A stretch of 64,000 nucleotides of DNA from Carnegiea gigantea (taxonomy: Eukaryota; Streptophyta; Magnoliopsida; Caryophyllales; Cactaceae). The stretch covers positions 599,501 through 663,500 of the forward strand of contig JAKOGI010000141.1 in NCBI GenBank assembly GCA_029747015.1, written 5' to 3'. Shown one piece after another: positions 20,090 to 33,360 of the stretch. Position 1 is the first letter of the stretch; each line of letters starts with the position of its first letter. The position numbers and the translations under genes were made by a program. The notes beneath the pieces are model-generated. The model ran no database searches, was not told the DNA's origin, and was given only the letters and a program-made list of their open reading frames with translations.

Positions 20090-20941
20090 TATCTATATAG
20101 CACCATGTTGAAAAACATGACAAATAATGAAAGGATCAGTCCAATAAGATCTCAATTTGCCTGAAAAAGGTGTAGTTTGGAGTCATAAAGCAACACCTTT
20201 GGTCCTGGGAAGAACTCTTTCCTGTGAGTATGCCTACCATGGAACAATTTTGCCATCTCCTTATGCATCCTAGAGTTCTCATAAGCTTTACCTCTGATTC
20301 CTTCTAACTCACTCAACTGTAACTTCCTCTCTACCCCAGCTGCCTCTAAGTCAAGGTTGAAAGTCTTTATAGCCCACATAGCCTAGTGCTTAAGTTCTAT
20401 AGGAAGATGGAAAGGCTTTGCAAAGACTACCCTAAAAGGAGACATGCCTTAAGGGATCTTAAAGGCCGTCCTATAAGCCCAGAAAGCATAACTGGGCTTA
20501 TCTGCCCAGTCCTTGCAGTTTCTACTCATAGTTTTTTCCAGAATCTGTTTGATCTGTCTATCAAAAACCTCTTCCTGGCCACCAGTCTAGGGATAATAGG
20601 TCGTGGCTAAACGATGAATGATCGAGTACTTGTTCAACAACGCATCAAAAGAACGACCGTCAAAATAAGTATCTTGGTCACTAATAATAGTCCTATGCAT
20701 GGCATACTTGGAGAAAATATTTTTCCTAAGGAGCTTGACAATGACTTTAGCCTCAGTTGTCCTGGTTGGCACAGCCTCTACTTAGGACAATATACTCATT
20801 TCCAAAAGAAGATGGAAATGGTCCCATAAAATCTATACCCCAAACATAAAAAATCACAACAATAATTATAAGGTTAAAGGGCATCATGTCTCTCATATTG
20901 ATTTTCCCAAACTGCCGACACCTAGGGCAGCGGATAAATTC
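20090..20941 (-). pseudogene. Athila-1 integrase, C-terminal half
   Basis: This is the distal part of a Ty3/gypsy Athila integrase. From right to left it shows PRCRQFGKIN, the second half of the HHCC zinc segment (20935-20905), then WGIDFMGPFPSSFGNEYI with the first catalytic D (about 20835-20780). ISDQDTYFDGRSF carries the second D, and HRLATTYYPQTGGQ leads to the expected Glu. FWAYRTAF and the C-terminal PGPKVLLYDSKLHLF (about 20210-20155) follow. Stops occur, for example between the core and C-terminal blocks. The first half of the same protein lies 12.4 kb away at 33351-33480, separated by an inserted element. Confidence 0.87.
20932..20941. other. Target-site duplication, left copy
   Basis: CTAGGGCAGC. 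It matches 33351-33360 at nine of ten positions and falls within Athila-1 integrase codons on both sides. Confidence 0.7.
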
Positions 20942-21150
20942 TATTCCGACTCCTAAAGTTTGACGTCAATAATTTTCGAGACCTATAACTTTAGAAATGA
21001 TTTCCTGGTCCATCCAGCTTTGGTGAAATAATTTCTGGGACCAAACCTACCAACAGTAGTTTTCTAAATTGCAAAAAGACCCCTGAGGTTTTTAAAATTT
21101 TCTTTTTAACCCCAATCATTAAAAACTTACTTTCAAAAATCAAAAATTTG
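20942..21150. repeat. Left terminal inverted repeat arm
   Basis: Noncoding arm beginning GGATAAATTCTATTCCGACTCC. It resembles the reverse complement of 33250-33350. It also contains GCAAAAAGACCCCTGAGG, wording common in plant DNA-transposon ends. Its inner limit with viral sequence (primer site at 21199) is not sharply defined. Confidence 0.5.
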
Positions 21151-21198
21151 CGTATGTATAATGTTTCTCATTAGTAGTATTTTCGATCCTCTTTCATT

Positions 21199-21210
21199 TG
21201 GTATCAGAGC
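21199..21210 (+). other. Pararetrovirus primer-binding site
   Basis: TGGTATCAGAGC on the plus strand, the initiator tRNA-Met complement that starts minus-strand synthesis in Caulimoviridae and by convention marks genome position 1. The first ORF begins about 90 bases downstream. Confidence 0.85.
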
Positions 21211-21292
21211 CGCATGACCAAAAATAATTAAGATAATTAAGCTAATTAATGCCTAGTTAGTAATTAATTAAGCTAATTAACTGAGATTAACG

Positions 21293-23065
21293 TTGGAATC
21301 ATCATCTGCTTGTCCTGAATTAAATTATTCACATATTGTTTACTCACCGAAAGGACTTTCCCCAGTGCCACCTCAATTAACCTATATCATTGATAGAGTT
21401 TTAAAATTAAAAGTAGAATTAGCTAAAGTTAAGATTGAAGTCAAAGAACTTAAAAAGCAAATACATGTTATTCACCTATCTCTAGTTAACGAAGTTAGGC
21501 ATAGCGGCAAATCTACTTCTAATATTAGTACTCCATTTCTGCATGAATATCCTTTCCAAAATCCAAAAAATAAAATTTTATTTTCCTTGCATGATATTAA
21601 AATTCAAAAACAAGTAGGAGAAAAGTCAGGTGAAAAATCGGCTAAAAAGCAGAAAAAGAATATGATGGAGTATAAGCAGTATACTCTTGAATAACTACAG
21701 AATATGTTCGAAAAGGAACAAAATCTAAAAGAATTAAACAAGATCATGGGTGCAATTAGTGATAAACATAACGTATTATCTCATGATAATGAAGAGACTA
21801 ATAATGTCCAATTAGAAGAAGAAATATATCAGCAGATGAATCTGATTAAACTGGAAGATCTTAATGTATTACCATTAGAACAAGTCAGAAGAAAACTTGA
21901 TAAAAAAATATGGTAAAATGGCTGTTGAAGATGAGATTATTGAAATATGAAAAGTACTCGACTTAGGTGAGATAGACACCAATTTGGTTAACAATGTTGT
22001 TCCTAAACTTGAAGAATTTGGTGAACCTTCTAGAAGAATAATTATTCTATAAGACCCAGGTACATTCTAACAGGACGTACAACCAATTGTTCCTTCAAGT
22101 TTATCCCAAAGAAATTCACAACCTTTGAAGAAATTAGCCTTACTCCAATTAGTCAAATCGGATATATCTTAAACATAGATGGAGCTCGTAACAGAGAAGA
22201 AATATTTGAGCATTGGAAACGAGACATGAACAGTGTCTTAAACCTAAACACCACATGGACTACTGTAAATTTCGAAAACTACATCGAACATAATTTTTCT
22301 GGCACTGTAGCTGACTGATATGATTCATTAAATGAAGATAGTAAAAATACATTAAGATTGATGGAAACATCAGCTACAATGTTTAAAAATCTATGTGAGA
22401 AAATCGAAATCGAATTCACTCGAGCTAAACTTGATTCTGAAGAAAAAGTAAGAGAATGGCAGAGAAAGATTAATAATATAGAATTATGGGATATGAGATA
22501 TCTGAAAAATTATATTGTTGAATTTAGTCAATATTATTACAAAATTGGGCATAATGAAACCAATTAGGGCATGTTCTATGATAAATTGTCATATCCTATA
22601 AATTCTATAATTGATGAAAAATACATTACATGGCTTGAAAGAGCAGATGTCATTAACACCCTGAGTTCAGGATTCTCTTATTTGTGAAAATGGGTCAATG
22701 ATTAGTGTCTTGATCTCTAAAAGCAAAAGAAAATTAAGAAGCAATTCCTAACTTGCTGGAATTCACCTCACAAATGGGAAAAAGAACTTGAAAAAAGAAG
22801 GAAAAGAAAATTCTATAAGAAAAAGAGTTTTAATTATCCAAGGGGTGAGAAATATAAAAGAAAATGTTACAACAAACTAAGTCCTAAAAATGATGATTTT
22901 TTAGGAAAGCAGCTTATTGCCTTGTAGGGAAAAAAAAAATTGCAAATGCTGGTCATGTGGAGAAGCAGGACATTATGCTAATAAATGAAAAAATAGGATG
23001 AATAACAAGCTTATTGAAACCCTAGGTAGCCTAGATTATGTTGAGTTAGTGAAGATGAGGCATTA
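21293..23065 (+). pseudogene. Pararetrovirus ORF1, capsid part with CCHC knuckle
   Basis: The N-terminal part (21293-21916) is Lys/Glu-rich with a coiled-coil-like segment (LKLKVELAKVKIEVKELKKQ) and no enzymatic motif. A stop at 21692-21694 and a shift in the A-run at 21902-21908 break it. After a further shift near 22080, a capsid-like domain rich in aromatic residues runs to about 22780, with stops at 22316-22318 and 22567-22569 among others. A Lys/Arg-rich stretch and a zinc knuckle C-K-C-W-S-C-G-E-A-G-H-Y follow (22936-22990); a stop lies just before the position of the last Cys. Coat proteins of this family end in this kind of basic segment and CCHC knuckle. The start at 21293 is TTG; upstream in-frame codons may belong to it. 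Confidence 0.72.
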
Positions 23066-23084
23066 GACCTAGCCTAAAGTAATA

Positions 23085-32387: not shown

Positions 32388-32454
32388 TCTTATCATCATT
32401 AAAAGTCTGAAAAGTAGCTGCCCCATTATTGTACTATTTTGAGAAGTGTCAGGT

Positions 32455-32610
32455 ATGTAAAATGAAGTGTGTACTGTAGACATGTAACGAGTCAGCATGT
32501 ACTGTAGCCATGTAAAAAATCAGTGCATACTATAGCCAATAGGGCATCCTATGTACCCCATCCCCTCTATAAAAGGGGAGGTTGAGGGCTGAGAAGGGAC
32601 ACAGTCATTT
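32455..32610 (+). promoter_or_regulatory. Pararetrovirus pregenomic RNA promoter
   Basis: A TATAAAA box lies at 32568-32574 in a GC-rich setting (CCCTCTATAAAAGGGG), with a CCAAT box near 32536. Upstream are three imperfect repeats of about 33 bases built on GTACTGTAGCCATGTAA (from about 32470, 32503 and 32527). TATA box plus upstream repeats after the last ORF matches the large intergenic region of Caulimoviridae. Transcription would start near 32600. Whether it is active in the plant is unknown. Confidence 0.72.
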
Positions 32611-33070
32611 GAGTATTCTTGAGCAAAATAGAAGTGGGAATTCTCCATTTCTCTATGAGAAAGCATCTCTAATGATCTTAGCTTAAGTCCTTCTTCAAGC
32701 TTTCCATTATAATATTTCCACTTTCAAGCTTTCAATAAATTAAGTTTCTCAGTAGGGAATGTTATTTAATTGAACCTTGTGTCTTAAATATTATAATTTC
32801 TTGATTAAAGTTCCAGTATACTTGTAAAATATTAAAAACTTGATTAGCGACTGCGGTCCGAGGTAGGAAATAAAATGAATTTAGCTGTACCTAATCTAAG
32901 GAAGGTGGGGTTGAGATTAACAATATCTGTAAACCGGAGACTAGATGAATATCAGAGTCTAGTGCCGACTAAGTCCAGGTAATGATCGAAACTTTCAAAT
33001 TAAATGTTAGTTATTTTACTAAACATGGTGGGCCGTTAATCACAGAAAATATAATATTTGAGATATAAGT
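32611..33070 (+). other. Pararetrovirus leader/intergenic region
   Basis: Noncoding sequence downstream of the TATA box. It contains an AATAAA at 32733-32738 that could serve as the viral polyadenylation signal, as in other members where the signal lies shortly after the start site. No second primer site is present, so the copy does not run a full turn round the viral genome. The border with the transposon-like arm is not sharp. Confidence 0.55.
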
Positions 33071-33079
33071 AGTAGATTG

Positions 33080-33350
33080 TGATAACTAGTACCATTAAAG
33101 TCATTATAAGAAGTCTAAGCACAAATATAACCCCACTTTTGCAAAATAGTCCAAAACTTCAAAGTGTTTGCATTTGGAGCCCTTCAAGGACCTAAAAATA
33201 AATATTTGTGACTCAGAAATCAGATAACCCAAAGTTTCATGCTCCAGAAACTATTGGTGCTAAACTAAATGGTCCCGTAAATATTTTTCTGAAATCGTAG
33301 CGTTAGAAAACCATTTCACCAAACCTCGAGGGACCAAAAAGCAATATATT
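33080..33350. repeat. Right terminal inverted repeat arm
   Basis: Read inward from 33350 on the minus strand it begins AATATATTGCTTTTTGGTCC and continues with AGGTTTGGTGAAATGG. It aligns weakly but colinearly with the left arm. A minus-strand open frame across 33442-33260 mixes integrase remnant and this arm and is not a gene. Confidence 0.5.
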
Positions 33351-33360
33351 CTAGGGTAGC
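33351..33360. other. Target-site duplication, right copy
   Basis: CTAGGGTAGC, the partner of 20932-20941. Confidence 0.7.

What the first reader, a model, noticed from the sequence alone, without database searches (positions are those of the whole stretch)
20932..33360. Near-complete pararetrovirus between Mutator-like ends with a 10-bp target duplication
Integrated plant pararetroviruses normally lie in host DNA with no transposon ends of their own. Here the segment holding the virus is flanked by CTAGGGCAGC / CTAGGGTAGC, and its ends are inverted relatives over about 100 bases. The duplication sits exactly where the Athila-1 integrase reading stops and resumes, so the target site is independently known. 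Either the virus integrated into a Mutator-like element that was already in Athila-1, or a DNA transposon moved while carrying a whole virus. The second would be a new route for spreading viral copies.
Basis: partly seen in the sequence, partly recalled or inferred. Interest (0 to 1): 0.9.

Follow-up and report, generated by a model that had tools for sequence, protein, structure and literature searches.

The report
Plant virus inserting like a transposon
In this plant genome a decayed DNA virus of a kind with no known means of inserting itself sits at many sites with the same exact ends and a short duplicated target, the footprint of a jumping gene, which suggests that some plant viruses of this kind entered chromosomes by transposition and not only by accident of DNA repair.

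Summary
The window element (20932-33351) is one copy of a repeated family of about 7.2 kb; 25989-31211 is a later nested insertion. The 28 left-end and 30 right-end loci compared stop at the same place. The ends are inverted relatives over about 115 nt in 10 of 10 copies tested. The 15 copies with both ends located carry a 9-10 bp target duplication, one weak at 6 of 9; 1 of 182 mismatched pairs reaches 7 of 9. So the virus did not fall into an old Mutator-like element in Athila. The arms look viral: they lie between promoter/poly(A) signal (right end) and primer site (left end), where pararetroviruses have their leader. Three ORFs diverged between subfamilies under selection (48/38/98 by codon position); private changes are even (273/249/283). 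Best reading: circular viral DNA opened at the leader palindrome and inserted by a transposase, probably Mutator-type in trans. Not shown: the enzyme; the circle; whether loci where only an arm was seen carry virus; how a related group with another right end inserted.

The parts
20923..20931 (.). left copy of the 9-bp target-site duplication
   Evidence: 8 of 9 match with 33352-33360
20932..33351 (+). whole inserted element (12,420 bp; about 7.2 kb without the nested insertion)
   Evidence: homology to other copies begins at 20932 and ends at 33351; 10 of the 15 other end pairs listed measure 7.0-7.3 kb
20932..21191 (+). left arm / left terminal inverted repeat (outer ~115 nt); by position the distal part of the viral leader
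   Evidence: 40 of 40 scored genome hits begin within 3 bases of the query start 20942; end at 20932 in 28 loci; TIR
21199..21216 (+). primer-binding site, complementary to initiator tRNA-Met
   Evidence: sequence, motif as in PMC13308828 (passage); copy L008 has its internal deletion starting at 21217
21281..21694 (+). ORF piece of unknown function; subfamily changes 3/4/14 by codon position
   Evidence: no significant Pfam match
22034..22567 (+). two ORF pieces in one frame, capsid-like by eye only (recalled); subfamily changes 6/6/17 by codon position
   Evidence: no Pfam match to a capsid family
23271..23687 (+). 30K movement protein piece
   Evidence: PF01107, 1e-09
24145..24486 (+). caulimovirus-type aspartic protease piece
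   Evidence: PF02160, 2.8e-14
25109..25438 (+). reverse transcriptase piece
   Evidence: PF00078, 7.9e-17
25512..25988 (+). RNase H piece, interrupted by the nested insertion
   Evidence: PF17917/PF17919; break seen against other copies
25989..31211 (.). later nested insertion, not part of the element (holds a Ty3-type integrase on the minus strand)
   Evidence: absent at this place in other copies; PF17921, PF24626 in 29620-31305 minus
31212..32360 (+). end of the pol frame and a second ORF without recognised relatives
   Evidence: one stop codon near 31281 shared by 15 of 15 aligned copies; no Pfam match for 5 pieces; subfamily changes 39/28/67 by codon position
32566..32575 (+). TATA box of the presumed pregenomic RNA promoter
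   Evidence: TATAAA in 11 of 11 copies aligned there
32734..32739 (+). poly(A) signal AATAAA, 166 nt after the TATA box
   Evidence: 9 of 11 aligned copies
33080..33351 (+). right arm; outer ~120 nt is the right terminal inverted repeat; by position the proximal part of the viral leader
   Evidence: 30 of 30 fetched right-arm loci end here, one alignment stopping 6 bases short; TIR
33352..33360 (.). right copy of the 9-bp target-site duplication

Best explanation
The element is a full-length genome of an extinct or unseen member of the Caulimoviridae. The palindromic 5' leader of its pregenomic RNA doubles as a pair of transposon ends. The virus replicated as a circle, in which the right end joins the left end so that promoter, leader, primer site and genes are in order. 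Copies of this circle were opened at the tip of the leader palindrome and inserted at staggered 9-10 bp cuts by a DDE-type transposase, most likely a Mutator-like (MULE) transposase supplied in trans. Shown: precise common ends, inverted ends, constant target duplication, promoter and primer site at opposite ends, selection on the genes between subfamilies, neutral private decay. Inferred: the circular donor, the Mutator-type enzyme, and that viral DNA and not an older chromosomal copy was the usual donor.
For: Ends: 28 left and 30 right loci stop at the same place. Target duplication: 15 of 15 located family-1 pairs; computed control for 14 of these: 13 of 14 match at 7-9 of 9 (best of two offsets) against 1 of 182 mismatched pairs. 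One mini-copy with an exact 10-bp duplication. Inverted ends in 10 of 10 pairs tested. A 9-11 bp duplication and TIRs of 100-500 bp mark MULEs (PMC3310237, passages); maize MuDR has 9 bp (PMC2563033, passages). Arms viral: TATA and AATAAA near the right end, primer site and first ORFs at the left end, so a pregenomic RNA needs right end joined to left end. Pararetrovirus leaders form a large stem-loop, in many genera upstream of the primer site (PMC5902531, passages); the two ends placed in that order fold at z -5.1. Length 7.0-7.3 kb in 10 other end pairs against 7.1-9.8 kb for the family (PMC7660458). Selection: subfamily-diagnostic changes 48/38/98 by codon position over three ORFs, private changes 273/249/283; the contrast stays without CpG columns in the 3' ORF (28/21/54 against 142/137/144). 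No other of 40 scored loci shares the mini-copy's deletion.
Against: No transposase was linked to these ends; MULE genes of this genome were not searched. The circle is not seen: a junction pattern with up to 3 mismatches gave 4 hits against 3 for the reversed control, one of the 4 being a target duplication; a pattern allowing a spacer did not complete. Loci where an arm was seen without virus: 2 of 29 right-arm loci (L072, L077) have no or 45 nt of element sequence upstream of the arm, and in 6 of 20 stretches downstream of a left arm no element sequence was found, for five of which only the first 200-360 nt of the element were seen; these may be truncated, interrupted or virus-less copies. 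A second group (RT query) has a different right end in the one copy looked at: C292 and C1425 share another right boundary, and C1425 shows no target duplication and no significant TIR against its nearest left arm, though that pairing is uncertain. In the one florendovirus cited the primer site is not downstream of the stem-loop. Copy L002 matches at only 6 of 9. Copies were picked by similarity to the window's left arm, so the low divergence there (2 of 334 sites in 20932-21280) is biased.
Confidence: 0.57

Rival explanations
1. A Mutator-like element captured a nearly whole pararetrovirus once and then multiplied as an ordinary non-autonomous DNA transposon, the viral genes being cargo.
For: TIRs and 9-10 bp duplications; star-like tree with long private branches, as expected from few masters; capture of host sequences by MULEs is known (Pack-MULEs; search listing only); some loci show an arm with no virus seen.
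Against: Cargo should drift: three ORFs show third-position excess between subfamilies. Apart from the normal stop near 31281, 20 of 22 stops shared by two or more copies occur across subfamilies, as recurrent transitions would make them; two are confined to one subfamily and could be inherited. The arms sit where a viral leader belongs. The one proven virus-less copy has no sister among 40 scored loci. Arm and virus were seen together in the window and at 15 of the 20 left-arm loci followed up (7, 8 more) and at 27 of 29 right-arm loci.
Confidence: 0.28
2. The virus encodes its own integrase or transposase, for instance in the unassigned ORF after RNase H.
For: The ORF was under selection between subfamilies and has no recognised relatives.
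Against: No Pfam match of any piece examined to a transposase or integrase; not the whole ORF was covered. Second ORFs of unknown function are known in florendoviruses, for which passive capture is proposed (PMC4241990, passages).
Confidence: 0.08
3. The virus inserted into a Mutator-like element that already lay in Athila-1.
For: Only that the window alone cannot exclude it.
Against: Seven other loci show the same left arm running on into viral sequence and eight of the 20 right-half stretches the same viral 3' part running into the right arm.
Confidence: 0.01
4. Passive capture of viral DNA in break repair, as assumed for endogenous caulimovirids, with ends and duplications by chance.
For: It is one of the two widely held routes (PMC10377300 section 3.1).
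Against: Constant ends, constant 9-10 bp duplications, and no (TA)4 within 50 bp in 28 left and 30 right flanks, while published copies are described as rearranged and often beside (TA)n.
Confidence: 0.01
5. Insertion by an LTR-retrotransposon integrase acting on the viral DNA.
For: The other route suggested in the literature (PMC10377300 section 3.1).
Against: Duplications are 9-10 bp, not the 4-6 bp of such integrases (recalled), and the ends are inverted repeats; no long direct repeat of the ends was listed.
Confidence: 0.03

Closest known systems
Endogenous caulimovirids (florendoviruses and others)
   Same: A3 protease, RT, RNase H, movement protein, tRNA-Met primer site, genome size, an ORF after RNase H, many decayed copies
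   Different: Published copies are described as fragmented or rearranged, often at (TA)n, and integration as uncoordinated or speculative (PMC4241990 passages, PMC10377300 section 3.1); here both ends and the target duplication are constant in the pairs located
Mutator-like elements (MULEs, Pack-MULEs)
   Same: TIRs of about 115 nt, 9-10 bp target duplication
   Different: TIRs are only 68-75% alike; no transposase found; the content is a whole virus whose promoter and primer site need the ends joined
Teratorn (piggyBac transposon fused with a herpesvirus, medaka; PMC5601938, abstract)
   Same: A virus genome that carries transposon ends
   Different: Teratorn is a 180-kb active piggyBac element with a large DNA virus; here a reverse-transcribing plant virus of 7 kb without a transposase found
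Retroviruses and LTR retrotransposons
   Same: Reverse-transcribing, unit-length insertions with target duplication
   Different: No integrase found, no LTRs, no terminal redundancy, longer target duplication (comparison partly recalled)

Membership tests
Caulimoviridae | caulimovirus-type aspartic protease, RT and RNase H, 30K movement protein | tested here: met
   PF02160, PF00078, PF17917/PF17919, PF01107
Caulimoviridae | capsid protein with zinc knuckle | tested here: inconclusive
   no Pfam capsid match and no zinc-knuckle pattern in the stretches examined; capsid-like by eye only
Caulimoviridae | tRNA-Met primer site and a promoter with poly(A) signal giving a terminally redundant RNA | tested here: inconclusive
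   sequence signals met: site at 21199, TATA 11 of 11, AATAAA 9 of 11; the RNA itself not testable
Caulimoviridae | circular DNA of 7.1-9.8 kbp | tested here: inconclusive
   unit length 7.0-7.3 kb fits; circularity inferred, junction not found
Caulimoviridae | no active integration stage | tested here: not met
   constant ends and duplications; this concerns the mode of insertion, not the gene content, so I file it as a relative with an unusual mode
Genus Florendovirus | MP-CP-AP-RT-RH order in ORF1 plus a florendovirus-type ORF2 | tested here: inconclusive
   MP lies 3' of the capsid-like pieces, so the order may differ, but the capsid is unproven; no RT tree with named viruses was made
Mutator-like element (MULE) | 9-11 bp target duplication | tested here: met
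   15 of 15 family-1 pairs, 9-10 bp, one weak at 6 of 9; mini-copy 10 bp
Mutator-like element (MULE) | long terminal inverted repeats (100-500 bp) | tested here: met
   about 115 nt in 10 of 10 pairs tested, but only 68-75% alike
Mutator-like element (MULE) | mudrA-type transposase, own or supplied by a partner with the same ends | not tested
   none in the pieces of the element examined; partner search not run
Transposon-virus fusion of the Teratorn type | transposase gene carried together with the virus genes | tested here: not met
   no transposase match in the pieces examined; coverage of the element by pieces is incomplete

The most novel reading that the evidence does not exclude
A reverse-transcribing plant virus with a regular chromosomal stage: its leader stem-loop evolved, or was taken from a Mutator element, to serve at once as RNA leader and as abutted transposon ends, so that a host transposase inserts whole viral circles with 9-bp target duplications. 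The supposedly passive Caulimoviridae would then include a lineage that integrates actively without an integrase of its own.
Probability: 0.47. Interest if true: 0.95.

Novelty: new variant of a known kind. Interest (0 to 1): 0.87.

Why it matters
How viruses of this family enter plant chromosomes is stated to be speculative, with break repair or retrotransposon machinery as candidates (PMC10377300, section 3.1). Here is a family with a clean enzymatic footprint at the copies whose two ends could be located, so the question becomes testable. If right, it joins two systems seen as separate (DNA transposition and reverse-transcribing viruses), offers a reason for high copy number, and parallels the transposon-herpesvirus fusions of fish. 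In my searches (open-licence library, listings and abstracts' starts) I saw no paper reporting target duplications or transposon ends for this virus family; the review PMC10741241, which holds the terms, was not opened.

Tried and rejected
Strict local alignment of the arms was marginal because it was not anchored at the true termini. The region 25989-31211 was dropped from the element after comparison. An LTR reading of the left arm (it ends just before the primer site) was dropped: no long direct repeat of it at the other end among those listed. Looking for viral relatives in IMG/VR with the RT and RNase H pieces confirmed none. Sister copies of the mini-copy were looked for and not found among 40 scored loci. 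Similarity of the outermost bases to MuDR (PMC2563033) is weak, was not computed, and is only a lead.

Rows dropped before counts: of 21 left-end loci with a right half in hand, the window included, 9 had a complete right end, 10 had none within the fetched stretch, 2 had a broken or different one (L015, L021). Six more pairs came (C398, C380, C857, C1795, C422, C2636). C86 was tried and left out: its left and right arms lie 45 kb apart and scored 1 of 9; an RT hit 2.7 kb before the right end shows that the right arm belongs to a nearer element. C2636 is not in the control because only 9 bases of its left flank were seen. The end pairs C59, C390 and C3 are known by coordinates only; their flanks were not fetched.
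Full report
What is there. The window lies at G000:C141:599501-663500 of a 1.13-Gb genome. The left arm has 894 first-look candidates in that genome, of which 40 were scored; all 40 match at 84-100% and begin within three bases of the query start (20942). The right arm has 997 candidates, 40 scored, 84-100%. The counts suggest hundreds of copies but are not a census.

Exact ends. In the seven other left-end loci first fetched, homology starts at window 20932, continues into viral sequence, and the DNA to the left differs. 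Of 20 further stretches covering the expected 3' parts, 14 hold element sequence and eight of these run to a complete right end at 33350/33351. Altogether 28 left ends and 30 right ends were compared, the window included: left homology starts at base 1-3; right homology reaches the last base in 25, stops one base short in 4 and six short in 1. These loci are best hits to the arms, so whole arms are expected; the point is that homology does not go beyond. In L035 and, 75 bp off, L037 the left neighbour is another copy of the same family. None of 27 left-end loci has a right arm upstream and none of 29 right-end loci a left arm downstream within the sequence held. None of the 58 flanks has (TA)4 within 50 bp.

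Target duplication. Fifteen copies have both family-1 ends located: fourteen match at 7-9 of 9 bases (C380 and L038 as perfect 10-mers; C1795 fits with a one-base shift), copy L002 at 6 of 9. In the computed control 14 of these pairs score 6-9 (best of two offsets) while 182 mismatched pairs score 0-7, one of them 7. A 691-bp copy at C1221 that keeps both arms and no viral gene has an exact 10-bp duplication. When this copy is used as a query, no other of the 40 scored loci shares its deletion. The one contrary case is C1425, whose nearest left arm and right boundary show no duplication; its right end belongs to a different group, and about 3.6 kb more than expected lies between, so the two ends may not belong together (coordinates).

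Inverted ends. Left end and reverse complement of right end align from base 1 or 3 over 111-115 columns with 78-85 identities (68-75%) in 10 of 10 pairs tested, of 15 available, each above the best of 300 shuffles. Inside the arms there is a weak period of about 30 nt.

Arms without virus seen. Besides the mini-copy, 2 of 29 right-arm loci (L072, L077) have no or about 45 nt of element sequence upstream of the arm. Six of the 20 stretches downstream of a left arm hold no element sequence; for one of these loci (L004) virus was seen next to the arm, for the other five only the first 200-360 nt of the element were fetched. They may be truncated, interrupted or virus-less; I could not tell. I lowered the main reading from 0.60 to 0.57, the bold one from 0.50 to 0.47, and raised the capture rival from 0.25 to 0.28 for this.

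What it encodes. Pieces match caulimovirus protease, RT, RNase H and 30K movement protein. An ORF follows RNase H; five pieces of it have no Pfam match. Without the nested insertion the window element is about 7.2 kb. Of the 15 other end pairs listed, ten span 7.0-7.3 kb, four span 8.3-21.4 kb (presumably with insertions), and one is the mini-copy. The family's genomes are circular, 7.1-9.8 kbp (PMC7660458, whole text).

Why the arms look viral. A TATA box (11 of 11 copies aligned there) and, 166 nt further, AATAAA (9 of 11) lie near the right end; the tRNA-Met primer site and the first ORFs lie at the left end. An RNA with promoter, leader, primer site and genes in order exists only if the right end is joined to the left end. 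In pararetroviruses the leader folds into a large stem-loop, in many genera upstream of the primer site, though not in badnaviruses or the one florendovirus cited (PMC5902531, passages). Put in that order, the two ends fold at -67.2 against a mean of -43.9 in 100 shuffles (z -5.1), as any inverted pair would; so the position is the argument, not the fold. The break point of the insertions is the tip of this palindrome.

Donor. In the 3' ORF, changes that separate subfamilies fall 39/28/67 on codon positions 1/2/3, private ones 184/177/198, all sites with a minor base in two or more copies 140/111/154; in the noncoding part the subfamily changes are 8/10/3. Diagnostic against private: p 0.005, and 0.002 without CpG columns. 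In two other ORFs (four copies define the contrast there) the figures are 9/10/31 and 89/72/85. Together 48/38/98 and 273/249/283; the first departs from evenness at p about 5e-8, the second does not. Sites were treated as independent and the subfamilies were defined from the same alignment. Apart from the one stop common to all 15 aligned copies (the normal end of pol), 22 stop positions are shared by two or more copies; 20 occur across subfamilies, as recurrent transitions would make them, and two are confined to one subfamily. Leader and right arm differ less between subfamilies (2.5-5.6% of sites) than the ORF (12.5%), but their private changes are also fewer (0.33-0.40 against 0.48 per site). 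So the unit lived and diverged as something functional, and each copy decayed after insertion. The tree is star-like.

Mechanism. Constant 9-10 bp duplications mean a staggered cut by one kind of recombinase. MULEs are distinguished by 9-11 bp duplications and TIRs of 100-500 bp (PMC3310237, passages); MuDR makes 9 bp (PMC2563033, passages). Hence a MULE transposase in trans is the most likely agent; that step is inferred. The virus-family literature I saw regards integration as passive or possibly retrotransposon-assisted (PMC10377300 section 3.1 and passages; PMC4241990 and PMC13308828 passages).

What does not fit yet. The RT query has 3458 candidates, against 894 and 997 for the arms (queries of different length). 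Of its 40 scored hits, 16 stop at the same query base (320) with 405-414 bits, as one apparently homogeneous group would. Only three of the 40 (window, C86, C422) lie beside an arm listed, but those lists are capped. One of the 16, C292, shares with C1425 a different right boundary. No abutted junction was found above control, which fits exclusive opening at the tip but leaves the circle unseen.

Verdict. The footprint of transposition for this virus family is well supported; that the ends are viral and the donor a circle is likely; the enzyme is a reasoned guess.

Noticed in passing
window 25989-31211: Nested insertion inside the RNase H frame with a Ty3-type integrase ORF on the minus strand (29620-31305); no long direct repeats listed, so perhaps not a simple full LTR element.
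   Followed up: partly
L080 (G000:C292:345240-345640) and L021 5974-6223: A second group of related pararetrovirus copies with another right boundary (...CACAAATTGA); 16 near-equal RT hits.
   Followed up: partly
L008 / L015 (G000:C107): Internal deletion begins at the base after the 18-nt primer site (window 21217), as if made during reverse transcription; the right part is also rearranged (pieces of 31279-31585 repeated).
   Followed up: no
G000:C104:1090023-1090590 and L035 (G000:C231): Copies that appear to be inserted into other copies of the same family (adjacent hits in opposite orientation).
   Followed up: no
L072 (G000:C1209) and L077 (G000:C382): Right arm with little or no element sequence upstream: truncated or virus-less copies.
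   Followed up: partly
window 29001-29270: GA-rich tandem motif (29127-29196) in a stretch open in several frames within the nested insertion.
   Followed up: no
window 32470-32525: 28-nt direct tandem repeat (79% alike) just upstream of the TATA box, possibly a promoter element.
   Followed up: no
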